The position numbers and the translations under genes were made by a program. The notes beneath the pieces were generated by a model that was given only the letters and a program-made list of their open reading frames with translations, did not search any database and was not told the DNA's origin. Below are positions 120 through 20,273 of a DNA stretch of 20,273 nt, in pieces. This DNA comes from a virus. Each line of letters opens with the position of its first letter. Position 1 is the first letter of the stretch. The stretch spans positions 1 to 20,273 of the IMG/VR virus record IMGVR_UViG_3300019360_000113, one strand, 5' to 3'.

Positions 120-141
120 GGTCTAGTGCCTCGATCAGATC

Positions 142-157: not shown

Positions 158-194
158 TTTATCCCTGGTTGGCGGCGATGATGTTGCCGCGGAC

Positions 195-268
195 TGGAGC
201 GGGTGATGGGAATCGAACCCACGTAGCCAGCTTGGAAGGCTGGTGCTCTACCATTGAGCTACACCCGC
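195..268 (-). tRNA. tRNA-Gly (anticodon TCC), with encoded CCA
   Basis: The reverse complement folds as a full tRNA. The acceptor stem is GCGGGTG (262-268) with its partner at 199-205, the anticodon stem CCAGC/GCTGG encloses the loop CTTCCAA (anticodon TCC at 234-236), and the T arm carries GGTTCGATTCC. The 3' CCA is encoded at 195-197 after discriminator base T. It reads GGA glycine codons. It lies on the same strand as the downstream tuf gene. Confidence 0.97.
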
Positions 269-297
269 AATCCCACCCCGTCGGCCGGCAGGGTTCG

Positions 298-2394: not shown

Positions 2395-2421
2395 CGCCGG
2401 CCCCCTGCGACTGGAGGCCGT

Positions 2422-2451
2422 TTGACAGCTGCCTGTCAGGACGGGCAGCAT
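2422..2451 (+). promoter_or_regulatory. Promoter candidate for the methyltransferase cassette
   Basis: A perfect -35 hexamer TTGACA (2422-2427) is followed after 18 bases by a weak -10 match CAGCAT (2446-2451), 28 bases before the methyltransferase ATG. The region is an 85-base divergent gap between minus-strand lysis genes and the plus-strand cassette. The weak -10 means it may need an activator or a non-sigma70 polymerase. Confidence 0.45.
2423..2438. promoter_or_regulatory. Operator-like inverted repeat over the -35 box
   Basis: TGACAG-CTGC-CTGTCA is a perfect 6-bp inverted repeat with a 4-base centre. It begins inside the TTGACA -35 element, so a dimeric repressor bound here would block polymerase. 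The binding protein is unknown. It does not match the alphaproteobacterial LexA direct repeat. Confidence 0.45.
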
Positions 2452-2461
2452 TCGGCCCGTC
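2440..2461. promoter_or_regulatory. Second inverted repeat (hairpin) upstream of the methyltransferase
   Basis: GACGGGC and GCCCGTC form a perfect 7-bp stem with an 8-base loop. The repeat covers the proposed -10 and the start-site region and ends 6 bases before the ribosome binding site. It may be a second operator, or a 5' UTR hairpin that affects translation. Confidence 0.4.
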
Positions 2462-2479
2462 AGGCTGAGGAGGTTGAAT

Positions 2480-3127
2480 ATGTCGCGTGGGTTGGAGAAG
2501 GTCGTCGCCGACGAGGCAATGCTTTGGGGCGACGCCGTCGCGGACAATTACCACGCGATCGCGGCCAGTCACATGGATCCTCAATGGCGGGACATGATCG
2601 TGCCGGCGCTGGCCGGGATCGACATCGACATGAGCCAGTGCGCCGATTTCGCCTGCGGCCGGGGACGCAACACCGTCAAGCTGCTGAAGGAAGGCGCGGG
2701 GCACGTCACAATGATCGACGTGAACCCGCAGAACATCGATTATGTGCGGGCGCACGTGTGCGTGCCGGGGAAGGCCACCGCAGTGCTGACGAACGGCCTC
2801 GACCTGGCGCCGCTTGAGGACGGACTGTTTACGTTCCTCTATACGTTCGACGCGATGGTCCACTTCGATGTGGAGATCGTGTTCGCCTACATTCGCGAGT
2901 TCCACCGGGTGATGCGTCCCGGGGCAGTCGCCCTCATGCATCATTCCAACTTCGACGGGCGTCCCGGCAGCGATTTTCGCGACAATCCGCACTTGCGCAA
3001 CTACATGACAGCAGCGCTGTTCAGGCACGTGGCCACGCGACGCGGTTTCGACGTGCTGCGCCAGAACGTGTTTTCCTGGGGTGAATTGACGGACGGTGAC
3101 TGCATCACCGTCATGCGAAAGGTTTAA
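2480..3127 (+). CDS. Class I SAM-dependent methyltransferase (phage moron candidate)
   Basis: A 215-aa protein with the class I fold. Motif I is ADFACGRGRN (55-64, a variant of DxGCGxG), strand 2 ends in the acidic D80 (VTMIDVNP), motif IV region is FLYTFDAMVHFD (119-130), and the post-motif is FHRVMRPGAVALMHHSNF. This resembles small-molecule or glycan methyltransferases more than DNA methylases; no NPPY or DPPY motif is present. The ATG at 2480 has GAGGAGG 6 bases upstream. The gene is opposite in strand to the late operon and sits between tailspike and lysis genes. Local GC is near 52% (31 of 60 bases at 2821-2880) against 85% at 7501-7560, a sign of separate origin. The substrate cannot be told from sequence. 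Confidence 0.85.
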   Translation: MSRGLEKVVADEAMLWGDAVADNYHAIAASHMDPQWRDMIVPALAGIDIDMSQCADFACGRGRNTVKLLKEGAGHVTMIDVNPQNIDYVRAHVCVPGKATAVLTNGLDLAPLEDGLFTFLYTFDAMVHFDVEIVFAYIREFHRVMRPGAVALMHHSNFDGRPGSDFRDNPHLRNYMTAALFRHVATRRGFDVLRQNVFSWGELTDGDCITVMRKV

Positions 3128-3130
3128 AGG

Positions 3131-3310
3131 ATGACCGATATCGAACGAGAGATTGCCGAGGTCGAGGCGCTGCTCATCGAGACCCGCAAGCGACATGCCG
3201 GGGAGATCGCGGCCCTGCAACAGCGCCTCGACGCGCTCCGGCCATCGGGCATGGTCGACATGCTCCACGGCGACCTGCGGAATTCGCTGCGGTTGCGGCG
3301 GCATCAGTAG
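3131..3310 (+). CDS. 59-aa coiled-coil protein, coupled to the methyltransferase
   Basis: A short ORF starting ATG 3 bases after the methyltransferase stop (AAAGG directly before it, so translation is probably coupled) and ending TAG at 3308-3310. The product MTDIEREIAEVEALLIETR... is a heptad-patterned helix over about residues 3-36, then RPSGMVDMLHGDL and a basic end (RNSLRLRRHQ). It has no recognisable family. Its last 7 bases overlap, tail to tail, with the end of the tailspike gene on the other strand. It may be a partner or regulator of the methyltransferase; this is inference from position. Confidence 0.6.
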   Translation: MTDIEREIAEVEALLIETRKRHAGEIAALQQRLDALRPSGMVDMLHGDLRNSLRLRRHQ

Positions 3311-5424
3311 CTCCGGCTGGTTTCACGCCACACGTTTCCGTCGCGGCGGTAGCGGAGCATGGCGCCGTTGGGCGGCGTCGCGTCGACAAAGCCTTTCGAG
3401 ATGATGGTGGCGTTGTGCTTGATCGTGGTGTTGGCATCGTTCACCAGCAGCTCGAACACCTGCCCATTGAAGCCGCCCAGGAAGTCCGTGATTATTGTCG
3501 CGATCGAATTGTTCGTCCTGAACATGCTGGCGTAGGTTGGCGCCAGCGACGGGGTGGCCGCATTGGCGGCCAACTGGACGACGATATCGGACGTAAGGCT
3601 GTAATTGTTCCGCACCGTCGCTGCCGCCGGCACGTTCTGCGCGAAGGCGCCGACGCTTGAGTAGCGGTTCTCCTCGACCACCATGTTTGAATTGGTAGCG
3701 AGGTTCACGCCGACGTCGAAATCCGTGAAGCGGTTATCTTTAATGGCACCATGACTGCTGACGGCGTCCACAAAAACGTCGTCCGTACGATCTGTCGGAT
3801 CGATGACGTAAGCAAAGTTATGCGCGATATCGACGTCACCGCAGCTTTGAAGTTGGAAGACCTTGTACTGCGCTGCCGCGGGTTCGCCTGGCGCGCTGTC
3901 GCGTTTGTAAAACGTGTTGCCGCGCGCAAAGAACTGCGCGATGCCCTGCGCCCACACACCTCCGATGAAGCATTGCGCGTGATTGTTGATGATCTTGAAG
4001 TCCGGGCCGTTCGCGACATTGAGGCTAGCCAGTAGGTTCGTCGCGACCACGTCGCAATCATCGATCAAGAGGCCCTCGATCACGGAAACGCCGATGTCGG
4101 TGAACACCAGGGCGTTGCCGCAGACCTGCCGGCAACGCCGGACAGTCACTTCTTTCGATCCAGAGCCGGCGAGGTAGATCAGGATCGCGTTGGTCGTGAG
4201 TTTCTTGCCATTGATCTTGCAGTTGTCGACGAGGGCGCGGAAAGCGTTGGTCAACTGCATGCCGAACGAGAACTGATCGTTGTTCTGATTGGCGCCATAG
4301 ACCGAGACGTTCTTAATCTTCGCTCCGACAGAATGCTCCTCGGCACCAGGCACCCAAGTCGGATATGTGATCCGGATAGCGCTATTGGGATTGTTAACGC
4401 CCTGCGCGATGATTGTGAGGTCGTTCACCTCAGTCGCCCAGGCTGAAGCCGCGTGATTGAAGGTGAACGGCTCCTGCACGGCATGCGTGAACAGGATCTT
4501 GGACACTTCGTCGCCGAAGCCATCGATGCGCACGTTCTTGTTGGAGATCGCAGCCAGGCCAGTCGCCATCGGAACATTGCCGACCGGCCATTTTACGCAC
4601 CCACCACCGGAGGGCAGTCGCGCGACCGCCGCGTCCATATACGCGGTCCAGTTACTCGACACAGGGTCCAGCACGTCATCGTAGGCATTGACCCACGTCT
4701 CGCGGACTTTGATCCATCCGGCCGGGACGGCCTTCTGCGTGCTGTCGGTCTTCGCCGGCGTCGGCACCGTTGGGTTCAGGTTGAACGCATGCTGCCCGGT
4801 CCATGTCGGCGCAATGGCTTGCGACAGCGCCGGCGCCGCGTCGGAGCGCAGGGCGGTCGGGGCGACGCCGTTGACGGGGGCAAGTCCGATCGTGCCGGTT
4901 GGGTCGGCAAACGGCAGCACGCCGCCGACCGTACCATAGGCGACGGCCTCGGGATCGCCGGTGGTGCCATTGAAGCCCAGCAGGGCGCCCGAGCGGGTCG
5001 CCTTGCGCGGCAGTTCGGCCACCGACGGCTCGCGCGTGGGCACGCGCAGCGCGCGCCCGAGCCGGGTGTTGACTTCCTGCAGCGAGGCAATCCCGCGATC
5101 CCAATCCGCCATCTCCGCCGTGGCCGGACGGGAGACAAAGTCGGACAGGTTCGACTGCTGCAGGCGCGTCGTATCGCGGAACGCCTTGACCAGCGCCAGG
5201 GTGATCGGCGGCGGCGTGGTCCAGGTGATGAGGCCGCCGGCGGGATTGGCAATGCCGGTGATGCTGGAAATCGACGGCAACAGATCGTTGCGCTCCACGC
5301 CGGCGGTGTCCCAGCCTTTGATCACGATATCGTTGGCCGACAACACCAGGTTGTCGAAGTTCAGCGTGTTGGTCACGCCGTTGGGCACCATGGTCCATTC
5401 GGTCGTCTGGACATTGACCGTCAT
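3304..5424 (-). CDS. Tailspike: T7 gp17-type N-terminus plus beta-helix
   Basis: A 706-aa receptor-binding protein. Residues about 1-125 (TEWTMVPNGVTNTLNFDNLVLSA..., LVKAFRDTT..., then a helical WDRGIASLQEVNTRLGRAL) fit the T7 tail-fibre N-terminal adaptor that docks to the tubular tail proteins. A Gly/Ala/Pro-rich linker follows. From about residue 240 (WVNAYDD..., LPSGGGCVKWP) a pectate-lyase-like right-handed beta-helix with repeated N-N and IxxN turns runs to about 630. The C-terminal 70 residues form a probable trimerisation domain ending RRDGNVWRETSRSY. The protein likely binds and perhaps cleaves surface polysaccharide. Its ATG overlaps the upstream stop (ATGA, 5421-5424). GC drops in the beta-helix part (31 of 60 at 4201-4260). 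Confidence 0.85.
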   Translation of the reverse strand: MTVNVQTTEWTMVPNGVTNTLNFDNLVLSANDIVIKGWDTAGVERNDLLPSISSITGIANPAGGLITWTTPPPITLALVKAFRDTTRLQQSNLSDFVSRPATAEMADWDRGIASLQEVNTRLGRALRVPTREPSVAELPRKATRSGALLGFNGTTGDPEAVAYGTVGGVLPFADPTGTIGLAPVNGVAPTALRSDAAPALSQAIAPTWTGQHAFNLNPTVPTPAKTDSTQKAVPAGWIKVRETWVNAYDDVLDPVSSNWTAYMDAAVARLPSGGGCVKWPVGNVPMATGLAAISNKNVRIDGFGDEVSKILFTHAVQEPFTFNHAASAWATEVNDLTIIAQGVNNPNSAIRITYPTWVPGAEEHSVGAKIKNVSVYGANQNNDQFSFGMQLTNAFRALVDNCKINGKKLTTNAILIYLAGSGSKEVTVRRCRQVCGNALVFTDIGVSVIEGLLIDDCDVVATNLLASLNVANGPDFKIINNHAQCFIGGVWAQGIAQFFARGNTFYKRDSAPGEPAAAQYKVFQLQSCGDVDIAHNFAYVIDPTDRTDDVFVDAVSSHGAIKDNRFTDFDVGVNLATNSNMVVEENRYSSVGAFAQNVPAAATVRNNYSLTSDIVVQLAANAATPSLAPTYASMFRTNNSIATIITDFLGGFNGQVFELLVNDANTTIKHNATIISKGFVDATPPNGAMLRYRRDGNVWRETSRSY

Positions 5425-8399: not shown

Positions 8400-10912
8400 C
8401 AGGCGCCTCCCACCTGGCAGGCGGCCAGCGCCTCGATGGCGGCGGCCTGGTCGTCGAAGGTCTTCGCGACGGCGTCGAGTTCATCGCGCTCCTGGTCGCT
8501 GAGCTGATCGCCGTAGCGCGCCATGAACGCCTGCAAGTCGTCCTCAGGCGTCGCCGCCTTTGTCGCCGCGTCGGCCTCGGCCGCGCGCACTGCCTCGAAA
8601 TCGGCATGCAGGTCGCTTTCCGGCGACGACTGGCGCACGACGTGCGTGTCGATGTCATCCGTGGTCAGCGGCGGGGACGCATCGAAGAGATCGGACTGCG
8701 CGCGGGCATCGGCATCGAACAGGCCGCCCGCCGGCGGTGCCTCGCTGCCGCCGCGCAACGGCTGCTGCAGGCGCCGCTCGGCAAGCTCGCGGTCCGTGAT
8801 GCGCTCGGCGCCAGGGACGACGGCCTGAGCGCCGTCCGCCGGCGGCCGGTCTAGGCCGGCTTGTACTGGTCCGGGCTCGCCTTCGGCTCGGACGGTCCGC
8901 CCGGCTCCCGCGCTGCCATCTTCTGGTCGAAGTCCGGCCGGCGCTGCCGCAGCTGCTTGCGCAGGTTGGCCATCGCCAGCGCGTTGGCCAGGCTCATCCG
9001 CGCCGCGGCCGGCATCGACCGTGTCGCCAGCAGGTCCTCCAGCTGGCTCGCGTGGGCTTGCAAGTCTTTCAGCGTCGGCATGCAACCGCTCCAGATCATC
9101 GAGCGTCAGCGGCTGTTGGGTCCGCTCACGGTGCGCCAGGTCGGCGTCTTGTTCAATGGGGCCGCGTTCGGCGAGGGCGGCGCGCGCGGCATCCTCTTCG
9201 GCCAGCATCGCGTCGGCGATCTCGCGATCGAGCATGTCAAGCGCCTCGACCGTCTCGGCCTCGCTGAGGTTGTCGACGCGTCGCGCCAGGGCCTCGCGGC
9301 GCTGGCGCCCCTCGTCCAACGACAAGAGCCAGGCGAGTGTGCGCGGCTCCAGGCGACGAACATCGAGGCCAAGCTCCGAGAGAAGCTGCTGCACACCCTC
9401 GTTATAGGCCCGTGTCTCGGCGGCGCGGATCGCATCGACGTCGTCCTCACGGTACAGCCGGCGGGCGCCTTGCGCGTCGGCGATCAGGTCGGTGATGAAG
9501 GTGTTGAGTTCGACGCTCTCGCCGCTCGCCCGCTCGCGCGGATAGAAGCCCTCCTCCGTGGCGCGGCGCGCCAGGTCGTCGGCGCTGTGACCGGCGACGC
9601 GGTCGGTCGAGACACCGGCATAGCGTTTGCGCTGGGTCAGGAACGAGCGCGGTCCCAGATCCTGCGCGCGCAGCTCGCCCGCTTCCGGGCTCTCGCTGTC
9701 GAGCCCGCCGACCTTGCGCACCCATGCCGCCAGCGATTGGCCCTGGCGCGTCTCGGGCAGCGGCGCCAGCCCACGCTGGATGCGGCGTGCCTCGGCCAGC
9801 TGGTCGACGGTCGGCCGGAAGCCATCGGGCACCGGCGCCGGCGTGAACGCACCGCGCAGCGTCTCGGCGGCGGCGGTCGCGATGTCGCGCGAGGCCGCCT
9901 CCAAGGTCGGCCGGTCGACGCGATCGGCCAGGCGCTGCGGGCTTTCCAGCCGGCCGCGCTGCTCGGCCGTGATGCGCGGCGGGCGCCAGTCCGGATCGGT
10001 GCGCAGGATCGCCTCGACGTCGACGCGCCGATCGGCCCCGAGCTGGCCGATGGCGGCGCGCAGCACCGCCTCGCGCGTCTCGGGCCGCACGCGCTCCAGT
10101 GCCTCGGCCATGGCCTGGCGCGTGCGCGGCTCATCGCCCGAGCCGATGGTCTGCAGCGCCGCCACGACCCGTTGCGTGGCGCGCGCCTCGGTGCGGCGCT
10201 CGAACGCATCGCCGATGCGGCCGCCCAGCCAGTGCAGGCCGCCACCGATCGCACCGCCGAAAGCGATGTTGATCAGGCTGTCGGCGAGGCCGTAGTCCGG
10301 ATCGCTCTCCCGCTTGGCCGACGCATAAATCGGCTCGACCGCGAGCGCGCCGAAGGCACCTTCCAGGGTGCCGGCGATCAGCCGGGCACGGCCGGTGCCG
10401 ACACGGGCGGCGAGCTGGGCGAAGCGCGCCGGACCCATCGCCGGGATGAAGGCGCTGGCGATGTTGGTCGGGTCGGTCGCCGTCAACAGCAGTTCCAGGC
10501 CGCCGGCGGCCAACCACTTCGCCGTGCCGTAGTCGCCGCCCTCGCGCGCGCGCCGGTAGATGAAATCGGCCTCGAGCTGGCGTTCGCGCTCGCCGATGAT
10601 CGACTGCAGGCTGAACGCCGTCATCGGCCGGTCGAAGGACAAACCCAGCCGCTTCACCCGGTCGTTGACTTCGCTTTGCGGCACCAGCGGCGGTGCCACG
10701 TTGTCGGCGCCGAAGAGTTCCGTCAGTTCGGGACCACCAAAGGCCCGCGCCTCGATTTCGGCCTGGTTGCGCGCGGTCTGGCTGGCGATGGTGCGCGTGG
10801 TCTCGGCCGCCATCTCGTCGATGACGGTGCCGAGATATTCGCCCCAGCCGGCCGGTTGGCGATCGAGCGCGATCGGCCGCGTCTCGCGCAGGGGATCGAG
10901 CCACACGCTCAT
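8399..10912 (-). CDS. Giant internal virion protein (gp16-like, first)
   Basis: An 837-aa protein. It starts MSVWLDPLRETRPIAL, with Gly/Ala-rich, moderately hydrophobic segments around residues 120-230 (WLAAGGLELLLTATDPTNIASAFIPAMGP..., LINIAFGGAIGGGLHWLGG) that could insert in a membrane, and a helical remainder. The ATG at 10910-10912 overlaps the gp15-like stop as ATGA, so the longer reading from 11332 is rejected. It is the probable ejection or core protein between gp15-like and the 992-aa protein. Odd point: residues about 611-687 (9081-8851) read as a low-complexity Gly/Ala/Pro/Arg stretch with only about 50% GC at third positions, while another frame there has the coding signature (see nested ORF). 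Confidence 0.7.
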   Translation of the reverse strand: MSVWLDPLRETRPIALDRQPAGWGEYLGTVIDEMAAETTRTIASQTARNQAEIEARAFGGPELTELFGADNVAPPLVPQSEVNDRVKRLGLSFDRPMTAFSLQSIIGERERQLEADFIYRRAREGGDYGTAKWLAAGGLELLLTATDPTNIASAFIPAMGPARFAQLAARVGTGRARLIAGTLEGAFGALAVEPIYASAKRESDPDYGLADSLINIAFGGAIGGGLHWLGGRIGDAFERRTEARATQRVVAALQTIGSGDEPRTRQAMAEALERVRPETREAVLRAAIGQLGADRRVDVEAILRTDPDWRPPRITAEQRGRLESPQRLADRVDRPTLEAASRDIATAAAETLRGAFTPAPVPDGFRPTVDQLAEARRIQRGLAPLPETRQGQSLAAWVRKVGGLDSESPEAGELRAQDLGPRSFLTQRKRYAGVSTDRVAGHSADDLARRATEEGFYPRERASGESVELNTFITDLIADAQGARRLYREDDVDAIRAAETRAYNEGVQQLLSELGLDVRRLEPRTLAWLLSLDEGRQRREALARRVDNLSEAETVEALDMLDREIADAMLAEEDAARAALAERGPIEQDADLAHRERTQQPLTLDDLERLHADAERLASPREPAGGPAGDTVDAGRGADEPGQRAGDGQPAQAAAAAPAGLRPEDGSAGAGRTVRAEGEPGPVQAGLDRPPADGAQAVVPGAERITDRELAERRLQQPLRGGSEAPPAGGLFDADARAQSDLFDASPPLTTDDIDTHVVRQSSPESDLHADFEAVRAAEADAATKAATPEDDLQAFMARYGDQLSDQERDELDAVAKTFDDQAAAIEALAACQVGGA
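8851..9081 (-). CDS. Nested 76-aa ORF inside the gp16-like gene
   Basis: An ORF in a different frame on the same strand: starts MPTLKDLQAHASQLEDLLATR, continues helical and Arg/Gln-rich, then KASPDQYKPA and TAG. GGAG lies 7 bases before the ATG. Counting codons, 71 of 76 third positions are G or C, against 38 of 76 in the long frame across the same bases, so codon bias favours this frame. It could be a real overlapping gene translated by internal initiation. Alternatively, two compensating frameshifts could have moved a piece of the larger protein out of frame. No family is recognised. Confidence 0.5.
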   Translation of the reverse strand: MPTLKDLQAHASQLEDLLATRSMPAAARMSLANALAMANLRKQLRQRRPDFDQKMAAREPGGPSEPKASPDQYKPA

Positions 10913-13305
10913 GGCGCGGACCCCGGCGGCAACGGATAGCCGTCGCCACCCAGCATGCGCTGGCGCGCCGGCGCAATCTCCTCGAACACGCTGGTGTTCA
11001 CGCCGGGCGCGAACGGCATGTAGTACGGCCGACCGCCGACCGTGACCGGCTCGCCGGGGGCGGCGAACAGGTACGCGCCGCGATCGTCGGGTGCCGTCAC
11101 CCAGAAGCCGCGCCGGCGCACGGCGTCGACCGTCATCGCCCGGCGCCGCTTTTCGCTCAGGCCCTCCAGGCCGGGCGCCGTGCCGGGGTCGAGCGGCAGC
11201 CTGTCGAGCGCGGCGACCATCTCGCGCTGGCGGTCCTTGATCGTGCCGGGATCGACCAGCGGCGCGCCGTCGACCTTGGGGATGCGCACGCCCGTCGAGA
11301 TGTCCCAGTGGCGGTAGAACACGTCGTTCCACGCCGTGCGGCTGGCCATGCTGTCGTCCATGCCGTGCGACGTGGCATAGAGCCAGGCCAGGCGCTCGGC
11401 CGCCGACTTCAGCGAGGCGAAGTAGTCGGCGCCGCCGGGCGTCGCCCGGAAGATCCGCTGCACGTCATCGCCGCTGCTGTCGACCCGGTCGGTGATGATC
11501 TTGACCCGATCGCGGCCGATGTTCTTTTCCACCTCGCTGCGCTCCAAGGTGAACGCCTGCGACAGCAATTCGCGGGTGCGCGGGTCCGTCGCCGGCAGCG
11601 TGGCCAGGACCTCGACGTCGGGCGGCAGCTTCTTGCCGGCGTCGAGCTGGCGGCGGACCATCTGCCATTCCTCGGGGCCGTAGGCCGCCTTCAGGCGATC
11701 GACTTCGGCGATGCGCGTGCGGCTGTCGGGCGCATTGAGGCGGCCCTCGACCGCGTCGGCCTCGGACTTGGTGAGCAACGCAATGCGGTGCTCCGGAATG
11801 CCCTCTTGGCGCTGCGCATCGATCAGCGCCGCGCGCGCCAGGCGCGCCGTCGCCGCGTCGTTGGCCTCGTTGGCCGTGCGCAAGGTCTCGTCGATCGTCG
11901 GGTAGAAGCGGCGCGCATAGGCTGCCGGGTCCTTGTCGGCAAGGTCCAGCTTCTGCTTCAGCGCCTTGGTGAGCGCGTCGCGTTCCTCCAGGTCCTCGGG
12001 CGTGAGCGAGCCGGATTGGGCGGCCCGCCGCTCGCGATCGATCATCGAGATGCGGCCGGCGAGCGCCGACGCCGGTTCGTTGCCGGCGGCCGCCAGACGG
12101 CTCCAGAATGCGTCGCGATCGCGCACCGACTGTGCCATCGTCGGGCCGCCGTAGTCCTCGGCCCGCTGCAGCAGCTGCGTCAGCTGCGGATAGCTCTCAC
12201 CGCGCGAGCGGTAGCCCTCGAATTCCTTGAACTGGTCATTGAGCTGGCTGCGCGCCTCGCGTTCCTCGGCCGTGAGCTGGCGGCGCACCGAGCGGGCCAC
12301 GGCCGCATCGGGCACGGTGCCGGTCTTCTCGAGATCGCCAACGGCCTGGCGCAACTGTGGCAGGGTCTTGCCGACCGTGTAGCCTTCGACACGATCGTAG
12401 AAATCCTTCATGCGGTCGAAGGACGGACCGAACCCGGCGCCTTTGGCGCGCGTCTGCAGGCGGGCGGTTTCCTCGGGCGAGATGGGCTGGCCGGCCTCAC
12501 GCGCCTGGCGATAGTCCGAGATGTCGGCGCGCAGCTCGGAGCGAGCCTGGGCGCCAAGGCTTTCGCTGCGTTGCTGGGCCTGCAGCATCAGCGACTGGCG
12601 CGACGTGGCGTCGAGGTGGCTGAACTGGTTGGGATCGCGCAGGGCGGCGATCGCCGCCGCCGGGCTGGTGCGGATCAGTTCCGATGCCTCGCCGGCCTGG
12701 AACTTGATCGTGCTCTGCCGCAGCATCGTCGCGGCCATGCGCGCCGGCACAAAGCCGGTGCGCACCGCGTCGTAGATGTTGGTGCGCACCTGGTCGAGGA
12801 GGATTTTCTTTTCCTCAGGCGTGCGGGCAAACAGCGCCTTGTTCAGCGCTGCGTCGTTATTCTGCTGCAACGCCAGCCGGGCATCCTCGATCTCGGCATC
12901 GCGTGCGTCGTGGCGCACGCTGAGCCCGATCGAGCCGGACAGCTGGTTGTAGCGCAGGTGGAACGCACGGCGTGCGTCAGGCGTCGACAGGCCCTGCAGC
13001 TCGCGATCGTAGATCTGCTTGGCCTTGGCCTGGAACTTGACCTCGCGGCCCTTGTAGTCGGCGTCGCCGTCGAGGTTGCGGCGCGTCTCGTCGAGCTCGT
13101 TGGTGACGCGCATCGATGCATCGCTGACCGCGACCGCGTCGCGGGCGTCCTGTTCCCTTTGTGCCCACTTGCCGATCTCTTCGAGCCCCTTGGCCAGGCC
13201 GCCGGCGAAGCCGCCGCCCTGGGCCATGGCGACGTCGAATGACGGTCCCGTGGGCTGGGGCACCCCGCCGCGCACCTGGCCGTAGGAGATGGTAGGCCAC
13301 GCCAT
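10909..13305 (-). CDS. Internal virion protein, gp15-like
   Basis: A 798-aa, mostly helical and charged protein without signal peptide or membrane segment, starting MAWPTISYGQVRGGVPQP. A Gly-rich segment (MAQGGGFAGGLAKGLEEIGKWA) is followed by long helices. T7 gp15 is 747 aa and sits at the same place, between gp14 and gp16; it forms part of the core that is ejected to make the DNA channel. I prefer the ATG at 13303-13305 (TGATG overlap with the gp14-like stop, GAGA 7 bases upstream); a GTG one codon earlier is possible. The assignment is by position, size and composition. Confidence 0.72.
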   Translation of the reverse strand: MAWPTISYGQVRGGVPQPTGPSFDVAMAQGGGFAGGLAKGLEEIGKWAQREQDARDAVAVSDASMRVTNELDETRRNLDGDADYKGREVKFQAKAKQIYDRELQGLSTPDARRAFHLRYNQLSGSIGLSVRHDARDAEIEDARLALQQNNDAALNKALFARTPEEKKILLDQVRTNIYDAVRTGFVPARMAATMLRQSTIKFQAGEASELIRTSPAAAIAALRDPNQFSHLDATSRQSLMLQAQQRSESLGAQARSELRADISDYRQAREAGQPISPEETARLQTRAKGAGFGPSFDRMKDFYDRVEGYTVGKTLPQLRQAVGDLEKTGTVPDAAVARSVRRQLTAEEREARSQLNDQFKEFEGYRSRGESYPQLTQLLQRAEDYGGPTMAQSVRDRDAFWSRLAAAGNEPASALAGRISMIDRERRAAQSGSLTPEDLEERDALTKALKQKLDLADKDPAAYARRFYPTIDETLRTANEANDAATARLARAALIDAQRQEGIPEHRIALLTKSEADAVEGRLNAPDSRTRIAEVDRLKAAYGPEEWQMVRRQLDAGKKLPPDVEVLATLPATDPRTRELLSQAFTLERSEVEKNIGRDRVKIITDRVDSSGDDVQRIFRATPGGADYFASLKSAAERLAWLYATSHGMDDSMASRTAWNDVFYRHWDISTGVRIPKVDGAPLVDPGTIKDRQREMVAALDRLPLDPGTAPGLEGLSEKRRRAMTVDAVRRRGFWVTAPDDRGAYLFAAPGEPVTVGGRPYYMPFAPGVNTSVFEEIAPARQRMLGGDGYPLPPGSAP

Positions 13306-13829
13306 CACGCGTTCTCATAGAAAGTGGCGCCGGACCGCTGGCCGACCGTGTCCAGGGCGCCGCCGCCCCCACCGACGCCACCACCGCCAAAACTGCTGAA
13401 GGCGCTGGTGCCAGCGCGGAACAGCGATCCGGCGGCCTGGCCGAAGGCCTGGGAGCGCCGCACGTTGCCCTCCCAGTGCGCCAGGCGGCCGCGGTTCTCC
13501 AGGCCCACGGCATCGCTCTCGGCTTCCCAGCGCGCCAAGTTGACCCGCCAGTCCACTTCGCGCGCCGTCTCGTTGGCCAGTTCCAGCGGCGAGCCGACGC
13601 CGACATCGACGCCGCTGCCGGAAATCGCCGCCAGCTGCTCGCCGGCGAAGCGCCGGCCTTCCATCAAGGTCTGACGGGCGTTGATCGCGCCCTGCTGCCG
13701 GCGGATCGAGGCCGCCTGGTTGGCCGCCCGTTGCTGGGCGCGGCCGGCACTCGATGCCGCCAGGCCCGACATGACCGAGCTCGCCGCCGATGCGACCGCT
13801 GCCGCGATCATGATGGCTGGCGCGATCAC
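13305..13829 (-). CDS. Internal virion protein, gp14-like
   Basis: A 174-aa protein. The N-terminus is an Ala/Ser-rich hydrophobic helix (MIAAAVASAASSVMSGLAASSAG), followed by an Arg/Gln/Ala-rich helix (AQQRAANQAASIRRQQGAINAR) with a conserved-looking segment GSGVDVGVGSPLELANETAREVDWRVNLARWEAE and a Gly-rich tail (FGGGGVGGGGG). This matches the gp14-type core protein of T7-like phages (T7 gp14 is 196 aa), which goes to the outer membrane at ejection. The start is taken as GTG at 13827-13829, overlapping the upstream stop as GTGA; an ATG at 13809-13811 is the alternative. Confidence 0.75.
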   Translation of the reverse strand: MIAPAIMIAAAVASAASSVMSGLAASSAGRAQQRAANQAASIRRQQGAINARQTLMEGRRFAGEQLAAISGSGVDVGVGSPLELANETAREVDWRVNLARWEAESDAVGLENRGRLAHWEGNVRRSQAFGQAAGSLFRAGTSAFSSFGGGGVGGGGGALDTVGQRSGATFYENA

Positions 13830-14434
13830 GACGCCGTCTCCCGCAGGTCGGCCGCCAACGCCGGGCCGACCACGTCCGGGCACAGCTCGCGCAGCAGCTG
13901 CACGTGCAGCAGGCGCCGGTATTTCTCGACGCGCCGCGGCAGGGCCGGCACGTCGCGATGCCGGGCGTAGACCAGCGACGGCTGGCCGCTGGTGTCGTGG
14001 CCATTGCGCAGGCCCTGGAAGACGAAGCCCAGTGCCATGACCAGGCGGTGGCCCGGTGAGAAGGGGCCGAGGACGTCGGTTTCGATGCACGTCGCGCCGG
14101 CACGGTGCGCCAGCTCCAGCTTCTCGAAGATCGGCCGGATGAAGGGCCGCCACATCATGGGCGTGACCCACGGCGCCGGCGCCACGGCCGCCCAGCAATG
14201 GCGGACCGACGACAGCCATATGAAGCCGCCGACGCCCGCCACGCGCGGCCCCTGCACCGGGTCATGGATCAGCGCAGTCCACGACCACTGCGGATACTTC
14301 AGCATCTGCGCCAGGCCGTCGCGCACGCCGTGCGCATGCACGGCGGGCGGCAGTTCGAGAGCATCGACATGCGCGCGTTCGAGCGCGACCAACTCGGTGC
14401 GGCGCACTGGCGCCGGCATGTGGCCGCCGTCCAT
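13826..14434 (-). CDS. GNAT-like protein, gp13 equivalent
   Basis: A 202-aa protein. It has an N-terminal HVDALELPPAVHAHGVRDGLAQML region, strands ending VAGVGGFIWLSS, then WVTPMMWRPFIRPIFEKLELAHRAGATCIETDV and SPGHRLVMALGFVFQG, which fits the last half of an acetyltransferase (GNAT) fold. T7 gp13 (138 aa) is also considered GNAT-like and is needed for virion assembly, although it is not known to be an enzyme. The ATG at 14432-14434 overlaps the gp12-like stop (TGATG). Position between gp12- and gp14-like genes supports this. Whether acetyl-CoA is bound is not visible from sequence. Confidence 0.65.
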   Translation of the reverse strand: MDGGHMPAPVRRTELVALERAHVDALELPPAVHAHGVRDGLAQMLKYPQWSWTALIHDPVQGPRVAGVGGFIWLSSVRHCWAAVAPAPWVTPMMWRPFIRPIFEKLELAHRAGATCIETDVLGPFSPGHRLVMALGFVFQGLRNGHDTSGQPSLVYARHRDVPALPRRVEKYRRLLHVQLLRELCPDVVGPALAADLRETAS

Positions 14435-16794
14435 CACGGCTGCACCATGGGCGCATAGATGTCGGGCACGACCAGCGCGACGTTGAGCGGCAGCGGCTGG
14501 TGCTGCTCGATGCGCTGCGCCGGCATGCCGGTCCACTCCGTGCCCTGCGTCAGCGGGATGTCGCGCGTATGCGACGCCGGCGGCTGCAGCGGCGGGGCGC
14601 CGGCATCGTACGGCGTGATCTCCTGCATGCTCTTGCGCTTGGTGCCGTAGCGCCCGCCCACGCTGTTGAGCACCCGCATGACGGCGCGCGGCACGCGCTG
14701 GGGCCGGCCCTGCAGGATGCCCGCGGACGGACCGGCTTCGAGCGGCATGGTCCAGTAGCGGCCCGTGTACCGGCGGCCGACGTGGGCGATGCTCACTGGC
14801 TGGGGTAGCGGGATCTGGCCGGCATTGACCGTGAAGTCACCCAGCACCTGGCCGTCGCCGACGACCGTCAGCACCAGGCCATTGAAGGCCGCCAGACCGG
14901 TGAGCGTCATCACCGACAGGCGCCAGTCGCCCTGCGCCAGCGCCGCCGCATCGAAGGGGAAGCTGGGCGAGATGTCGACACGAACCTGCGTGCCCGACAC
15001 GTACTGTACGATCCTGGCCGCGCACCAGCCCCACAGCGGCGGGTCATCGGGGTCCCAGTCCTCGGGGTCGCCCTCGTCAGGCTCGTCGTCCGGCGCCAGC
15101 GCGTAGCCGCGCGTGATCCAACGGCCGACGTCGCCCGGCGCGAAGACGCCGGCTGATGCCGTCACCAGCACGTTGCTGCCCGTCGGCGCGGCCAGCGTCA
15201 GCGCGGCGGACGGCTTGTTGTCGAGCGTGAGGCTCATGTCGAGGTGGCAGCGCTCCCACGGCGGCGTCTCTTTCGGGTCGCTCCACTCCAGACGTTCCAT
15301 CGTACGGAAGTCGACGCCGCCCACGGTGCGCCGCACGCAGGACCAGAGTTCGTCCTGCGTCGGGCCGGGGATGACGCAGATGCTGTCGACGTCGGCACCG
15401 TTGCCGCCCGCCACATCGCCCAGCGGATGATGATGCCAGGCGTTGACGTTCTCCTTGCGCGAGTAGGTGCAGGCGGCCAGGTCGCCGTCGCTGCGGATGA
15501 TCCAGATCAGGCTGACGGGCGTTTCGTGGTAGGCGAGGCCCTTGATGCCGCCCATGCGCAACGGCCCCACGATGTGGTCAGCCAGCAAGGTGAGGTCCTC
15601 GCCGTCATACGCCTGCAGGTCGTTGCTGTAGACCAGCGCCCGCAGCCGGCGGCCCTGCTTGTCGACGAACACGGCGCCGTTGCCGATCAGGATGGGCGGC
15701 ACGTCGGCCGCGCCGAAGCTCGACAGCGGCTTGGCGGAGACGCCTGTCGGCGAGGCCGGCGCCCGGTCGGAGGTCCCGCCGATGCGCAGTTCCTGGCCAC
15801 CCGTGAAGGCCAGCACGTCGTTCAGCGGCAGCAGGGCCTTGATGCGGTCGACCTCGGGCGTGCCGGCGGCGATGCCGATGCCATCGGCCGCCGTGGTGTC
15901 GGGTGAGAAGCGGTCGTAGTTACCGATCACCGAGCTGTCGGCACGATCGGGCGCGATGATGCTGCCGGCGATCCATTGGCGCTGCTCGTGGATGGTGGCG
16001 CAGGCGGGCCAGCCGCGCGCGGCGCTGAACAGACCCAGGCGGAAGCGCTCGCGCGGATTGAAGGCATTGGGACTGAACACCCGCTGGCTGCCCTGCACCA
16101 CGGCCTGGACCGACGTGGGGCCGATGAAAGCGCTGATGACGCACCAGATCCACGCGCTCGACGTGTTGGGGTCGAGGTTGGGGTCGATGCGATCGTAAAC
16201 CCGCAGATGGCGGCCAACGTCGCTTGCCACGAACGATGGCAGGAGCGTCGTGAAGGTGATGGTGCCGGTGCCGCTGGCCGGCGCGAGCGAGATGGAATTG
16301 TCCGGTGCGTTCTCGGCTTCGTAGGGACCATCGAGCATAGCGCGGACGGTCAGCGTCCAGCTCGTGTGCGAAAAGCGGTTGAGCGAGTAGCGCTCGAAGT
16401 TGCGATGGAAGATGTAGAGCCGGTCGGCGCTCTGCGTGAAGCTGAGTTGAAACACCTGGCTCTGGTCCCACGGCGTTGCGAGTTCGATCGGCACGCCGCC
16501 GCCGTCGACGATCAGGCCGCCGTCCTTCCAGAAGCGGACATAGAAATCGCCCCACTCCACCACATACGCCTGCTCGTCGCTGAACTTGAACGGCCAAACA
16601 CGGCAGCGCTTGTCGGCGTATTTCGGCTTGCCCTTGAAGCGATTGCCCTCGCGGTACTCGATCAGGCCGGTGGGGTGGACGATGTTGTTCTGCAGCTTGC
16701 GCGCGCCGCTGCCGTAGCGCACCAGGTCGGGACGGCCGATCACCTTGGACGACAGTTCGCCGGCGGTCGGGCCTGTGAGCGCGACGCGGGTCAT
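14434..16794 (-). CDS. Tail tubular protein B, gp12-like
   Basis: A 786-aa protein (T7 gp12 is 794). It begins MTRVALTGPTAGELSSKVIG, then RPDLVRYGSGARKLQNNIVHPTG and YREGNRFKG, a pattern typical of the nozzle protein N-terminus. The body is beta-rich (WPFKFSDEQAYVVEWGDFYVRFWKDGG; DRLYIFHRNFERYSLNRF) and WIIRSDGDLAACTYSRKENVNAWHHHPLG lies in the middle, a propeller-like motif seen in this family. It forms the distal tail tube to which spikes attach. The start ATG overlaps the gp11-like stop (ATGA, 16791-16794), so the reading from 16998 is rejected. Confidence 0.88.
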   Translation of the reverse strand: MTRVALTGPTAGELSSKVIGRPDLVRYGSGARKLQNNIVHPTGLIEYREGNRFKGKPKYADKRCRVWPFKFSDEQAYVVEWGDFYVRFWKDGGLIVDGGGVPIELATPWDQSQVFQLSFTQSADRLYIFHRNFERYSLNRFSHTSWTLTVRAMLDGPYEAENAPDNSISLAPASGTGTITFTTLLPSFVASDVGRHLRVYDRIDPNLDPNTSSAWIWCVISAFIGPTSVQAVVQGSQRVFSPNAFNPRERFRLGLFSAARGWPACATIHEQRQWIAGSIIAPDRADSSVIGNYDRFSPDTTAADGIGIAAGTPEVDRIKALLPLNDVLAFTGGQELRIGGTSDRAPASPTGVSAKPLSSFGAADVPPILIGNGAVFVDKQGRRLRALVYSNDLQAYDGEDLTLLADHIVGPLRMGGIKGLAYHETPVSLIWIIRSDGDLAACTYSRKENVNAWHHHPLGDVAGGNGADVDSICVIPGPTQDELWSCVRRTVGGVDFRTMERLEWSDPKETPPWERCHLDMSLTLDNKPSAALTLAAPTGSNVLVTASAGVFAPGDVGRWITRGYALAPDDEPDEGDPEDWDPDDPPLWGWCAARIVQYVSGTQVRVDISPSFPFDAAALAQGDWRLSVMTLTGLAAFNGLVLTVVGDGQVLGDFTVNAGQIPLPQPVSIAHVGRRYTGRYWTMPLEAGPSAGILQGRPQRVPRAVMRVLNSVGGRYGTKRKSMQEITPYDAGAPPLQPPASHTRDIPLTQGTEWTGMPAQRIEQHQPLPLNVALVVPDIYAPMVQP

Positions 16795-17390
16795 GCGAAC
16801 CAGTCCCCGCTCTCGCGAGCGTCCAGCCAGGCGTCGGGCCAGATTTCCGGCGGTTCGCCCTCCTGGCCGTCGATCGACTGCATGTCCGACAGAGCGTCCT
16901 TGGCGTCCTTCTTGGCGGCCGCGCGCAACGCCTCGCTGGCATTGAGCGGCTTGCCCACGATCCACGCCAGGCGGGCCGACAGGTAGTCGATGAACCACGG
17001 CGAGAATTTGCCCGGATCGGTCTTGCGCTTGATCGCCCAGATATTGAGCGGTGCCGAGGCGTTGGTGCAGATATAGCCCTCGGCGACGACAAAGGGCCGG
17101 CCGCGCTTGCGGTCGCCGCCGACGCGCAGCACGCGCACGCAGTCGGATGGCACCTTAATGGCGGTCGAGAAATCGGGGCTGGCGTACTCCGACGCATCGA
17201 CGGCGGCCAGGTCCTTGAACCAGCCGGTGGCGAAGTTCCAGGGATGCACCGCCAGCGCCACGTCGAGCTGGACGTCTCGCACGCGCCGCAGATGCTTGGC
17301 GCCGGCAGTCTGCGACGTCTCGGCGTTGTCGATCGGCTCGATCTCGAGGCGCGCGAGCGAGAGGTTGAATATGTCGGTCCAGCTGGCCAT
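16791..17390 (-). CDS. Tail tubular protein A, gp11-like
   Basis: A 199-aa protein (T7 gp11 is 196). It starts MASWTDIFNLSLARLEIEPI and has ETSQTAGAKHLRRVRDVQLDVALAVHPWNFAT, the helical block with Trp-Asn-Phe-Ala characteristic of the gp11/gatekeeper family, then VPSDCVRVLRV, YICTNASAPLNIWAIKR and WFIDYLSARLAW. It forms the ring that joins the portal to the tail nozzle. It begins after a 76-base gap holding the parS-like palindrome; the nearest purine-rich SD-like sequence (AGGA) is 15 bases upstream, so initiation looks weak or depends on the hairpin. Confidence 0.88.
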   Translation of the reverse strand: MASWTDIFNLSLARLEIEPIDNAETSQTAGAKHLRRVRDVQLDVALAVHPWNFATGWFKDLAAVDASEYASPDFSTAIKVPSDCVRVLRVGGDRKRGRPFVVAEGYICTNASAPLNIWAIKRKTDPGKFSPWFIDYLSARLAWIVGKPLNASEALRAAAKKDAKDALSDMQSIDGQEGEPPEIWPDAWLDARESGDWFA

Positions 17391-17431: not shown

Positions 17432-17461
17432 CGCCGGCGGTTCCACGTGGAACCGCCGGCG
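17432..17461. other. 30-bp perfect palindrome with parS-like core
   Basis: Two 15-base arms, perfectly complementary and without a spacer, meet at 17446/17447. The centre 17440-17453 is GTTCCACGTGGAAC, identical to the core of a well-described chromosomal parS variant (for example in Pseudomonas), the DNA site of ParB. The full consensus, TGTTYCACGTGRAACA, differs only at its outermost bases. As RNA it would also be a very strong hairpin in the late transcript between decoration and gp11-like genes, but no U-run follows on either strand. It could be a partition site, a transcript-processing hairpin, or both. Confidence 0.7.
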
Positions 17462-17466
17462 ATCAC

Positions 17467-17913
17467 TCACACGTGGATGACCCGCGTGGCGAGGCGCAGC
17501 ACGGCGCCGGGTGTCGGCGCGGCGCCGCCGATCGTCACCAGGATGTTGCGATCCTGGTCGACCACGAAGCCCATGCCGGCGTTGGCGGTGATGCCGCCCT
17601 GGCCGGCCGCCGTGCCGGATGCCGCCGCCCGGTAGCGCGCGGCGCTGCCATCATCGCCCACCGCGAACGTCACCGACGCGCCGGCGGCATCCCAATGGAA
17701 ATCCATGCCGACGACGCGCTGGTTCTTGTAGAGACGCCCCATCACGACGACATCGTTCTGGGCGCTGCCGGCACCGGCCGCCGGAATGGTGAACTGATCG
17801 TAGATGATGGCGGGCCGGCCGGCCTGGTCGCCGCCGGCGACCGGCTGCTTGTTGGCCGGCACCAAGGCCGGGTCGAGATACTTGGCGGCGTTGACGCCAT
17901 ATGCGGTAGCCAT
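17467..17913 (-). CDS. Head decoration-like structural protein
   Basis: A 148-aa protein with no membrane segment, starting MATAYGVNAAKYLDPALVPANK. It is rich in Gly, Ala and Val with beta-type alternation (NDVVVMGRLYKNQRVVGMDFHWDAAGASVTFAVGDDG; VVDQDRNILVTIGGA). AAGGAG lies 6 bases before the ATG, the strongest ribosome binding site in the head-tail block, which fits a protein made in large amounts. It lies directly after the capsid gene. No named family is recognised; decoration or capsid-stabilising protein is the best guess. Confidence 0.55.
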   Translation of the reverse strand: MATAYGVNAAKYLDPALVPANKQPVAGGDQAGRPAIIYDQFTIPAAGAGSAQNDVVVMGRLYKNQRVVGMDFHWDAAGASVTFAVGDDGSAARYRAAASGTAAGQGGITANAGMGFVVDQDRNILVTIGGAAPTPGAVLRLATRVIHV

Positions 17914-17999: not shown

Positions 18000-18941
18000 T
18001 CAGCTCTCGGTGACTTCGATGGTCACGACCATGTATTCGTGGTTGCGCCGGGCACCCACGCTGATGTCGGTCGAGACGCGATAGCGGCGGTAGGATTGCT
18101 CCCACGTCACCACGCCGTTGGCGCTATAGGGCGTCCAGCGCTTGAAGCTCTTGTTCTTGATGAACATGATGAGCTTGCGCACGTTGGGCGAACCGGCCGT
18201 GTAGGGCAGGTAGCGTTCCAGGATGGAACCGTCCTGCTTGTTCGGATCGTACAGATCCTCGACGCGGATGAAGTCGACCAGGCCCATCGACACGATACGG
18301 CCCTTCTCGCGCACCATCATCGAGCTATAGTCGCGCGAGGCGAACTCGACCGCCGTCATCAGGCTCTTTTCCGCCTTGGCGTTCCACAGGCAGATGATGC
18401 GGTCGCCCTCCTGCTCGTCGAACATGCCCTTGGTCTTGAGCATTTCGACGCCGCTGTCGAACTTTGTCGTCGAGAAGCCGGCGCCGCCATGCACGATGTT
18501 CTGGCCGGCCGGGAACGCGATCGGTGTCGTACCGGTCTTGCCCTGGTACATGGTTGCGGTCGACGCGTTGATGACCGTGGCCACCTTCTGGCGGTTGGCC
18601 GCCGCGACCTGTTGGCGCGCGAACGTGCTGCGCGCGTCCGTCATCGTCTTCAGCCGGATCTCGTCGTGCTTCGCGACCGTGGTGTCGTGGTAGTAGTCGT
18701 CGAAATACATCCAGCGCCGCCAGGCATCGATCGGCGTCGTCTGCAGTTCGGTGTCGCGGGTGTTGAGCGGACGCATGATCGCGGTGCCGACGAAATCGTC
18801 GGACATCGCATCGGCGCCCTGGTCGGTGACGTCTTCGACGAGACCCGACAGCAGGTCCCTGTTTTGCTGGCTCAGCACCTGAAGCGTGTCGGCGTAGCGC
18901 GACGACATCAGGGTGGCCATGTTCTCCGATTGAGTTGCCAT
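18000..18941 (-). CDS. Major capsid protein candidate
   Basis: A 313-aa soluble protein, starting MATQSENMATLMSSRYADTLQVLSQQ. It contains TPIDAWRRWMYFDDYYHDTTVAKHDEIRL, ARQQVAAANRQKVATVINAST, and a C-terminal part with MVREKGRIVSMGLVDFIRVEDL and YRRYRVSTDISVGARRNHEYMVVTIEV, which fits an HK97-fold coat protein of the type found in integrated phages. T7 gp10A is 345 aa. It lies after the scaffold and before the tail-tube genes, as expected for the coat protein. GGAG is 9 bases upstream of the ATG. The family is assigned from context more than motif. Confidence 0.75.
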   Translation of the reverse strand: MATQSENMATLMSSRYADTLQVLSQQNRDLLSGLVEDVTDQGADAMSDDFVGTAIMRPLNTRDTELQTTPIDAWRRWMYFDDYYHDTTVAKHDEIRLKTMTDARSTFARQQVAAANRQKVATVINASTATMYQGKTGTTPIAFPAGQNIVHGGAGFSTTKFDSGVEMLKTKGMFDEQEGDRIICLWNAKAEKSLMTAVEFASRDYSSMMVREKGRIVSMGLVDFIRVEDLYDPNKQDGSILERYLPYTAGSPNVRKLIMFIKNKSFKRWTPYSANGVVTWEQSYRRYRVSTDISVGARRNHEYMVVTIEVTES

Positions 18942-19388: not shown

Positions 19389-20273
19389 CTATCGTGCTCC
19401 CTGCTGCTGTGGCCCGCGAATGCCGACCTTCATTTCCTGCAGCCGGTCCCATTTTTGCTGGACCGTCTTGTGCTGCGGGTGGTTGGCGTTGGTGAGCGCC
19501 TCCACCATGGACGGGTCGCCCTTCATGCGCCCCAGTTCCTGCTCGGCCTCCTGGGCCGTCGTGATGGTGAAGGTGCTGCCGCCACCGGGATGCGCGCCGT
19601 CCTCGGCCAGCAGATCGGCGAGCTTCAGCAGGCCCTGCATGCCCTTGCTGTAGTCGCCCTCGGCGCGCGCCACGGCGCCCACCGTCTTCTCCGACCAGCC
19701 AAGATATTCGCCCAGCCGGCGCACGGTGGCGACGTTCCTCTCGTAGCCACCCTTCCACTCGGCGCGCAGCTTGGTGTCGTCCTCCTTGGCGGCGGTCGCG
19801 GCGTCGTTCTGCTCCTTGGCGACGACGTCGGACATGAATTTCATCCAGTCCGTCGTCAGGCCGGCGGCGGCCTGGGCCGTCACGCCATGCTTGAGGAAGG
19901 CCGGACCGGCCCACTCGGTCATGCGCGGATCGACGCCATCGCCGGTGGGGAACTTGTAACCCGCGACCTCGCCGGGCACGCCGATCGCCTTGTTGAAGGC
20001 GGCGCGCTGCTCGGGCGTGGCGTTCTCGCCGGGCAAAAGGATGCGGTCCCTGCCCGCCTCGGCCTCCATCTGCAGGAAGCGATCGGCGAACTGATCCACC
20101 GACGTGAAGCCGTGGGTGGCAAGCGCCGTGCGACGGTTGTCGGAGAGCTGGTGCATCCAGCCTGGCAGGCTTCCGCCGCCGGCACCACCGCCAGCACCGC
20201 CGCCGCCAGCAGCACCGCCAGCAGCACTGCCGCCGACACCACCGCCAGCACCGCCGCCGCCAGCAGCACCGCC
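19389..20273 (-). CDS. Scaffold-like protein with Gly/Ala linker (runs off right edge)
   Basis: The visible 294 residues include a Gly/Ala-rich linker, then SLPGWMHQLSDNRRTALATHGFTSVDQFADRFLQMEAEAGRDRI, LPGENATPEQRAAFNKAIGVPGEVAGYKF, and a charged helical C-terminus ending GPQQQGAR. The order (LP-W, KGF-SVDQ-like helix, LPG-E, F-K-GVPxxxxxY) is that of many phage scaffolding proteins just upstream of the capsid gene. The frame stays open to the window edge, so the ATG at 20156 is not necessarily the start; the true N-terminus is probably outside the window. The protein would guide capsid assembly and be absent from the mature head. Confidence 0.75.
   Translation of the reverse strand, partial: GGAAGGGGAGGGVGGSAAGGAAGGGGAGGGAGGGSLPGWMHQLSDNRRTALATHGFTSVDQFADRFLQMEAEAGRDRILLPGENATPEQRAAFNKAIGVPGEVAGYKFPTGDGVDPRMTEWAGPAFLKHGVTAQAAAGLTTDWMKFMSDVVAKEQNDAATAAKEDDTKLRAEWKGGYERNVATVRRLGEYLGWSEKTVGAVARAEGDYSKGMQGLLKLADLLAEDGAHPGGGSTFTITTAQEAEQELGRMKGDPSMVEALTNANHPQHKTVQQKWDRLQEMKVGIRGPQQQGAR
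20183..20273. repeat. 54-bp in-frame tandem repeat (Gly/Ala linker)
   Basis: A 37-base segment at 20183-20219 recurs without mismatch at 20237-20273, a 54-base offset (18 codons). In the scaffold-like frame it encodes units of Gly, Ala and a little Val or Ser. The second copy reaches the window edge, so the array may continue. Length change here would keep the frame. Confidence 0.8.

What the first reader, a model, noticed from the sequence alone, without database searches (positions are those of the whole stretch)
17432..17461. parS-like palindrome inside a prophage structural operon
The centre GTTCCACGTGGAAC (17440-17453) is identical to the core of a known bacterial parS variant, and the match extends into a 30-bp perfect palindrome. 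With equal base frequencies a given 14-mer is expected about 0.00008 times in 20 kb on one strand, so chance is unlikely, although selection for any strong hairpin raises that. Chromosomal parS sites usually cluster near the origin. One in the late operon of a prophage could recruit host ParB (helping a prophage or excised genome segregate, or silencing late genes by ParB spreading), or bind a phage-encoded ParB. Alternatively the palindrome acts as an RNA hairpin setting gp11-like expression.
Basis: partly seen in the sequence, partly recalled or inferred. Interest (0 to 1): 0.72.

Follow-up and report, generated by a model that had tools for sequence, protein, structure and literature searches.

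The report
Late-operon RNA hairpin resembling parS
A perfect 30-base palindrome between the capsid and tail genes of a prophage is most likely an RNA hairpin of a kind that many related phages have at the same spot, probably to set how much tail protein is made; its likeness to a bacterial chromosome-partition site is probably accidental.

Summary
Window 17432-17461 is a perfect 30-bp palindrome centred on GTTCCACGTGGAAC, the core of Pseudomonas aeruginosa parS1-4. It lies 5 nt after a cement-like gene and 41 nt before the tail-tube gene TTPA of an epsilon15/T7-like late operon.

Relatives often have a strong GC hairpin here: 53 of 105 distinct junctions against 21 of 1416 control windows. Of 20 prophages fetched from the inferred host's order, the 10 with the capsid gene close to TTPA all have one; the other 10 do not. 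Sequence is not kept: 0 of 184 loci found by TTPB similarity hold GTTNCACGTGNAAC. T7 and epsilon15 have terminators in this stretch.

A working parS is unsupported: listed host-family parS are mostly paired GTTTCACGTGAAAC sites, near parA where read, and the window has no ParB_N match. Host ParB might still bind. Complication: one podovirus lineage, found by the motif itself, carries 27-28 dispersed sites of the same 16-mer (10-11 exact), one directly before TTPA.

The parts
17432..17461 (-). Perfect 30-bp palindrome; in the late mRNA (minus strand) a hairpin of 14 pairs (13 from the palindrome plus one U-G at the base) with loop ACGU and no U-run after it
   Evidence: MFE -32.0 kcal/mol for a 46-nt piece; 0 of 200 shuffles fold as well
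17440..17453 (.). 14-bp core identical to the core of P. aeruginosa parS1-4; flanks here are G..C
17467..17913 (-). 148-aa cement/decoration-like virion protein gene, immediately upstream in the transcript
   Evidence: phrog_486, virion structural protein, E 1e-4; position after MCP and before TTPA as in epsilon15 and BcepC6B
18000..18941 (-). Major capsid protein gene
   Evidence: phrog_3437 E 1e-26; PF19821 E 8e-20
16791..17390 (-). Tail tubular protein A (TTPA, T7 gp11-like) gene, first gene after the hairpin
   Evidence: phrog_394, E 2e-27
14434..16998 (-). Tail tubular protein B (TTPB, T7 gp12-like) ORF; real start probably near 16770, since the profile match begins at residue 78
   Evidence: phrog_376, E 1e-144
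19389..20156 (-). phrog_3742 gene upstream of MCP

Best explanation
The palindrome is the intercistronic RNA hairpin of the late operon, between the capsid/cement genes and the tail-tube genes. Shown: the place, the fold prediction, and the enrichment of strong hairpins at this same junction in relatives. Inferred: as RNA polymerase leaves the cement gene, the 14-pair hairpin forms. It stops part of the transcripts or blocks 3'-to-5' decay, so that much capsid and cement protein and little TTPA/TTPB is made, the arrangement of T7's terminator Tphi between genes 10 and 11. The window's hairpin lacks a U-run, so partial or Rho-assisted termination or mRNA 3'-end protection is likelier than classical intrinsic termination. 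The parS-like centre is most likely accidental.
For: Hairpin (stem 8 or more, 6 or more G-C, loop 3-9) within -8..+62 nt of the cement-gene stop in 53 of 105 distinct junctions without the window, against 21 of 1416 windows inside TTPB and 2.4 expected from shuffles of the junctions; in loci above 60% GC, 22 of 41 against 20 of 567. Other junctions: MCP stop 17 of 113, TTPA stop 6 of 109, TTPB stop 2 of 108. UUCG loops in 10 of the 54 hairpins. Of 20 prophage loci fetched from the inferred host's order, the 10 with MCP less than 800 nt before TTPA all have such a hairpin starting 53-138 nt before TTPA, 6 of them with GCAA, GAAA or UUCG loops. Epsilon15's record has rho-independent terminators annotated between gp9 and gp10, after MCP and cement protein and before TTPA. 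In T7, genes 11 and 12 are expressed only by readthrough of Tphi after gene 10 (PMC5592923, passages). The hairpin folds strongly.
Against: No U-run follows the stem, and one search did not list it as a terminator. Loop ACGU is neither UUCG nor GNRA, and an RNA hairpin does not need a self-complementary loop (chance 1 in 16). The junction had no such hairpin in 52 of 105 relatives, nor in the 10 of 20 host-order loci where the MCP was not found or lay 1.7 kb or more away. My scan also did not pick the terminators annotated in epsilon15, so it does not measure terminators as such. No relative is closer than about 40% amino-acid identity, so descent of this very hairpin is not shown. The counts are not corrected for relatedness. 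A podovirus lineage with the same module has the window's 16-bp centre at this junction as one of many dispersed sites, which accident does not predict.
Confidence: 0.74

Rival explanations
1. It is a working parS: host ParB nucleates on the prophage DNA and spreads, silencing late genes or tethering the prophage to the segregation machinery.
For: Core identical to P. aeruginosa parS1-4, of which parS1/parS4 carry C on one flank. The closest host relative's parS pair contains the half-site GGTTCCAC, and at least one host-family genome uses GTTCCACGTGGAAC (its list of matches is cut). Chance of the half-site in a given palindrome about 8e-5.
Against: 0 of 184 loci found by TTPB similarity have the pattern. 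The listed host-family sites are almost all GTTTCACGTGAAAC, by mnmG and parA in the genomes whose genes I tested. Flanks are G..C; among 81 viral copies of the core 35 are T..A and 2 are G..C, and all 81 extend their symmetry only 0-3 bp beyond the core, against 8 here; but among 99 viral copies with G..C flanks 41 extend 1-6 bp further and one 14. No ParB_N match in the window.
Confidence: 0.08
2. It is a DNA operator of a phage-coded regulator, the same kind as the dispersed GGTTCCAYRTGGAACC palindromes of a podovirus lineage with the same module.
For: Two contigs (39777 and 39074 bp) carry 28 and 27 such sites at up to 3 mismatches, 11 and 10 of them exact, reversed control 0. MCP, TTPA and TTPB profiles match in both (PHROGs for the first). 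In five palindrome-rich contigs checked (L509, L510, L540, L511, L516) a copy lies directly before TTPA, as in the window. The 16-bp core of the first three is identical to the window's.
Against: The window has one site at up to 3 mismatches where that density would give a dozen or so. Sister contigs L511 and L516 have other palindromes. The arms beyond the core differ from the window's. No regulator identified.
Confidence: 0.11
3. It is a bidirectional terminator or a recombination/cruciform palindrome with no role in the late operon.
For: Perfect palindromes occur as terminator-like elements elsewhere (for example 34 bp with A and T runs in L226).
Against: It lies in the middle of a one-way operon, with no T-run on either strand.
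Confidence: 0.07

Closest known systems
T7 late terminator Tphi (between genes 10 and 11)
   Same: Element in the late operon after capsid and before tail-tube genes gp11/gp12, which are made by readthrough (PMC5592923 passages)
   Different: Tphi is the terminator for T7's own RNA polymerase; here a cement gene lies between capsid gene and hairpin, no U-run follows, and the polymerase is unknown
Epsilon15 rho-independent terminators between gp9 and gp10 (NC_004775)
   Same: Same module (MCP, cement protein, terminators, then TTPA/TTPB) in a podovirus record
   Different: Other sequence; one stem-loop annotated on each strand; two more genes (gp9, gp10) in the stretch; annotated in the record, and my hairpin scan did not pick them
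Chromosomal parS of P. aeruginosa
   Same: 14-bp core identical
   Different: Flanks G..C, long extended symmetry, prophage late operon, single copy in 20 kb, no parAB seen in the window
Mycobacteriophage L5-type stoperators (recalled, from no call)
   Same: Only as a comparison for the dispersed palindromes seen in other podoviruses
   Different: The window has a single copy

Membership tests
Late-operon attenuator hairpin (Tphi-like position) | Strong hairpin between capsid/cement and TTPA genes on the late strand | tested here: met
   same place in 53 of 105 relatives
Late-operon attenuator hairpin (Tphi-like position) | U-run after the stem (intrinsic terminator) | tested here: not met
   tail reads CCTGATCCTT; not listed
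Late-operon attenuator hairpin (Tphi-like position) | Partial stop or processing of the late mRNA | not testable with these tools
   needs RNA mapping
Chromosomal parS | 14-bp core GTTNCACGTGNAAC | tested here: met
Chromosomal parS | T..A flanks of the 16-bp site (common, not absolute) | tested here: not met
   G..C here; 35 of 81 viral copies T..A, 2 of 81 G..C; real parS sites with one other flank exist
Chromosomal parS | Near parAB or origin, or kept in related elements | tested here: not met
   prophage structural operon; 0 of 184 relatives found by TTPB; host-family sites by mnmG/parA where read; distance to the host's origin could not be tested
Chromosomal parS | Bound by ParB | not testable with these tools
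   binding assay needed; half-site GGTTCCAC occurs in a parS of the closest host relative
Phage-coded parABS site | ParB gene in the same phage | tested here: inconclusive
   no PF02195 match in the 20-kb window, but the rest of the phage is missing
Dispersed-palindrome operator system | Many copies through the genome | tested here: not met
   1 site at up to 3 mismatches in 20 kb

The most novel reading that the evidence does not exclude
The hairpin is two-faced: as RNA it attenuates the late operon, and as DNA its centre is a selected binding site, either for host ParB or for a phage regulator shared in kind with the podoviruses that carry 27-28 sites of the same 16-mer, so that late-gene silencing in the prophage and attenuation in the lytic cycle use one 30-bp element.
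Probability: 0.1. Interest if true: 0.66.

Novelty: new member of a known kind. Interest (0 to 1): 0.25.

Why it matters
It corrects a tempting but probably accidental parS call, and shows that a hairpin between the capsid/cement and tail-tube genes recurs across epsilon15/T7-like podoviruses and prophages (about half of those checked), with sequence turned over but position kept. If the parS-like centre were real, it would be a direct test of whether host ParB spreading silences prophage genes.

Tried and rejected
Single-protein searches for close relatives with TTPA and TTPB in IMG/VR and with TTPB in genome contigs found none; tblastn of the MCP against phages found none. A search for the 20-mer centre in IMG/VR found none. 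Rfam at its gathering thresholds gave only the tRNA. The terminator scan did not list the hairpin. One search's column of distances to TTPA was computed in local coordinates and is wrong; it was redone. The second fold (L332) was aimed at the wrong place and is not used. The idea that perfect symmetry proves a DNA site was dropped: perfect palindromes of 28-48 bp occur elsewhere in related loci, some with terminator-like A and T runs, and a host-order prophage (L341) has a 22-bp perfect palindrome with another centre between MCP and TTPA. The idea that the 16-mer shared with a multi-site podovirus lineage makes the window a member was weakened by the single copy. A 44-bp palindrome with the same 16-bp centre at a gene end in another viral contig (L365) fits chance on a rough estimate: about one long palindrome per 0.5 Mb times 2e-5, with the size of IMG/VR assumed, not measured. 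Paper searches returned none and 84 returned one review on another subject; I saw the listings, and of three listed papers (PMC4368675, PMC7022226, PMC5592923) passages only. These searches do not show that nothing is in print.

Full report
WHAT IS THERE. The window is a virus record of 20273 bases. The genes named here read on the minus strand and form the late module of an epsilon15/T7-like podovirus: phrog_3742, major capsid protein (PF19821, phrog_3437), a phrog_486 virion protein, then TTPA (phrog_394), TTPB (phrog_376) and further virion proteins. Between the phrog_486 gene (its stop codon ends at 17467) and TTPA (start 17390) lies the palindrome 17432-17461, 30 bp, perfect, with no spacer. 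Its centre GTTCCACGTGGAAC is the core of the P. aeruginosa parS sites: parS2/3 have T..A flanks, parS1/4 T..C (PMC4368675, passages). Here the flanks are G..C and the symmetry goes 8 bp beyond the core on each side. In the late mRNA it is a 14-pair hairpin with loop ACGU, -32.0 kcal/mol in a 46-nt piece, 0 of 200 shuffles folding as well. No run of U follows.

WHERE THE PHAGE LIVES. The left end of the window holds what I read by eye as the start of tuf on the minus strand (1-119; no tool named it), a tRNA-Gly (195-268) and then sequence like the 3' part of tRNA-Tyr. In 385 genomes of the class of G009 (by its record title an Inquilinus MAG) the best match to window 1-400 was G201, 84% over 2-351, and that locus has tRNA-Gly followed by a whole tRNA-Tyr. 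So the record most likely begins in host DNA and the prophage sits in tRNA-Tyr (inferred).

RELATIVES OFTEN HAVE A HAIRPIN, NOT THE SEQUENCE. I took the loci in which capsid gene and TTPA stand in order (127 of 165 sequences, window included; 117 with a gene between them; the other 38 lacked a clear MCP or TTPA, a start codon, or the right distance) and asked for a hairpin of at least 8 pairs, 6 of them G-C, near each gene end, dropping repeats by the first 40 nt and junctions too near a locus end. At the stop of the gene before TTPA it is present in 54 of 106 junctions, at the MCP stop in 17 of 113, at the TTPA stop in 6 of 109, at the TTPB stop in 2 of 108, and inside TTPB in 21 of 1704 windows. 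In one search, without the window and repeats, it is 53 of 105 against 21 of 1416 inside TTPB and 2.4 expected from dinucleotide shuffles; for loci above 60% GC it is 22 of 41 against 20 of 567. Related loci are not independent, so the Fisher values in that call overstate the case, but the contrast with neighbouring junctions of the same loci is large. Stems and loops differ from lineage to lineage; UUCG loops occur in 10 of 54. Half of the junctions have no such hairpin.

THE HOST'S OWN ORDER. Of 76 genomes in the order of G201, 32 have a TTPB relative. I fetched places from 20 of these 32. In 10 the MCP is found less than 800 nt before TTPA, and all 10 have a hairpin starting 53-138 nt before TTPA. 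In the other 10 the MCP was not found in the piece (5) or lay 1.7 kb or more away (5), and none of those has a hairpin within 140 nt of TTPA. The hairpin therefore goes with the capsid-cement-TTPA order. None of the 184 loci found by TTPB similarity (4 + 80 + 80 + 20) holds GTTNCACGTGNAAC.

THE HOST'S parS. Of 41 genomes of G201's family, 39 have GTTNCACGTGNAAC and 31 have exactly two copies; the listed ones are nearly all GTTTCACGTGAAAC (not every match was listed). I read four neighbourhoods. By Pfam, the sites of G370 lie at mnmG, rsmG, parA and parB, those of G201 by mnmG, parA and parB, those of G445 by mnmG and parA, those of G082 by parA (the other genes there were not tested). Fairness requires two points on the other side: G201's own pair includes a site with the half GGTTCCAC, exactly the window's half-site, and G445 uses GTTCCACGTGGAAC itself. 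Host ParB may thus bind this DNA. In 81 copies of the core from 80 viral loci (the scan stopped at its limit), 35 have T..A flanks and 2 G..C, and none extends its symmetry by more than 3 bp. Among 99 copies with G..C flanks in 78 further loci, 56 do not extend beyond the 16-mer, 41 extend 1-6 bp, one 14 bp, and one lies in a contig folded on itself.

HOW IT PROBABLY WORKS. T7's one terminator for its own RNA polymerase lies after gene 10, and genes 11 and 12 are made only by readthrough (PMC5592923, passages). Epsilon15's record marks terminators in the same stretch, though my hairpin scan did not pick them. The simplest account is the same device: much capsid and cement, little tail tube. 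Shown: position, fold, recurrence. Inferred: partial stop or 3'-end protection, and the stoichiometry. The missing U-run argues against a classical intrinsic terminator here.

A LEAD THAT COMPLICATES THE COINCIDENCE. The 16-mer GGTTCCACGTGGAACC has 99 stretches in IMG/VR. A lineage with the same MCP/TTPA/TTPB module carries it over and over: 28 sites in 39777 bp and 27 in 39074 bp at up to 3 mismatches, 11 and 10 of them exact, none for the reversed pattern. Sites counted between genes: 4 of 10 (L509), 10 of 12 (L540) and 4 of 8 (L421) in that lineage, 10 of 14 (L511) and 6 of 8 (L516) in sister contigs with other palindromes, 0 of 1 in L517. In L509, L510, L540, L511 and L516 a copy lies directly before TTPA. 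This looks like the operators of a fast-changing phage regulator; no ParB_N domain was found in four of these records and no clear regulator in the proteins scanned, which were a part of the genes. The window has one copy where a dozen or so would be expected, so I do not count it as a member, but I keep the possibility in the novel case.

VERDICT. A real feature, correctly seen; most likely an ordinary kind of late-operon hairpin with a parS-like centre by accident.

Noticed in passing
L386/L399/L421/L509 (IMGVR 3300038309_000033), L351/L375/L398/L407/L410/L540 (3300038682_000138), L414/L510, L420, L511, L516: Podoviruses with the same MCP/TTPA/TTPB module carry dispersed 16-26-bp palindromes, 27-28 sites per 39 kb in two contigs (GGTTCCAYRTGGAACC at up to 3 mismatches; reversed control 0), many intergenic, some inside genes such as a helicase; sister contigs have other palindromes (GGTGTTCCAYRTGGAACACC, GGTAGTCGGYRCCGACTACC). 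Looks like a stoperator-like system of changing specificity; no ParB_N found in four records.
   Followed up: partly
window 1-366: Host DNA at the left end: tuf start (read by eye), tRNA-Gly, and the 3' part of tRNA-Tyr, so the prophage attachment site is most likely in tRNA-Tyr.
   Followed up: partly
L086-L165: Among 81 copies of GTTCCACGTGGAAC in 80 IMG/VR loci (scan stopped at its limit), 35 have the parS flanks T..A (5 expected at 1 in 16), so full parS sites seem common in contigs classed as viral, phage-borne or host-derived.
   Followed up: no
L365:10892-10935: A 44-bp perfect palindrome centred on the same GGTTCCACGTGGAACC overlaps the end of a 108-aa ORF in a 97-kb viral contig.
   Followed up: partly
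G398 (family of the inferred host): One genome has 25 copies of GTTTCACGTGAAAC on many contigs, some at 81-base spacing, where 31 of 41 family genomes have two matches; a parS-rich element or a mixed assembly.
   Followed up: no
window 10909-13308, 3304-5424, 2384-3304: Large ORFs on the late strand (799, 706 and 306 aa) with no PHROG or Pfam match at E 0.001.
   Followed up: no
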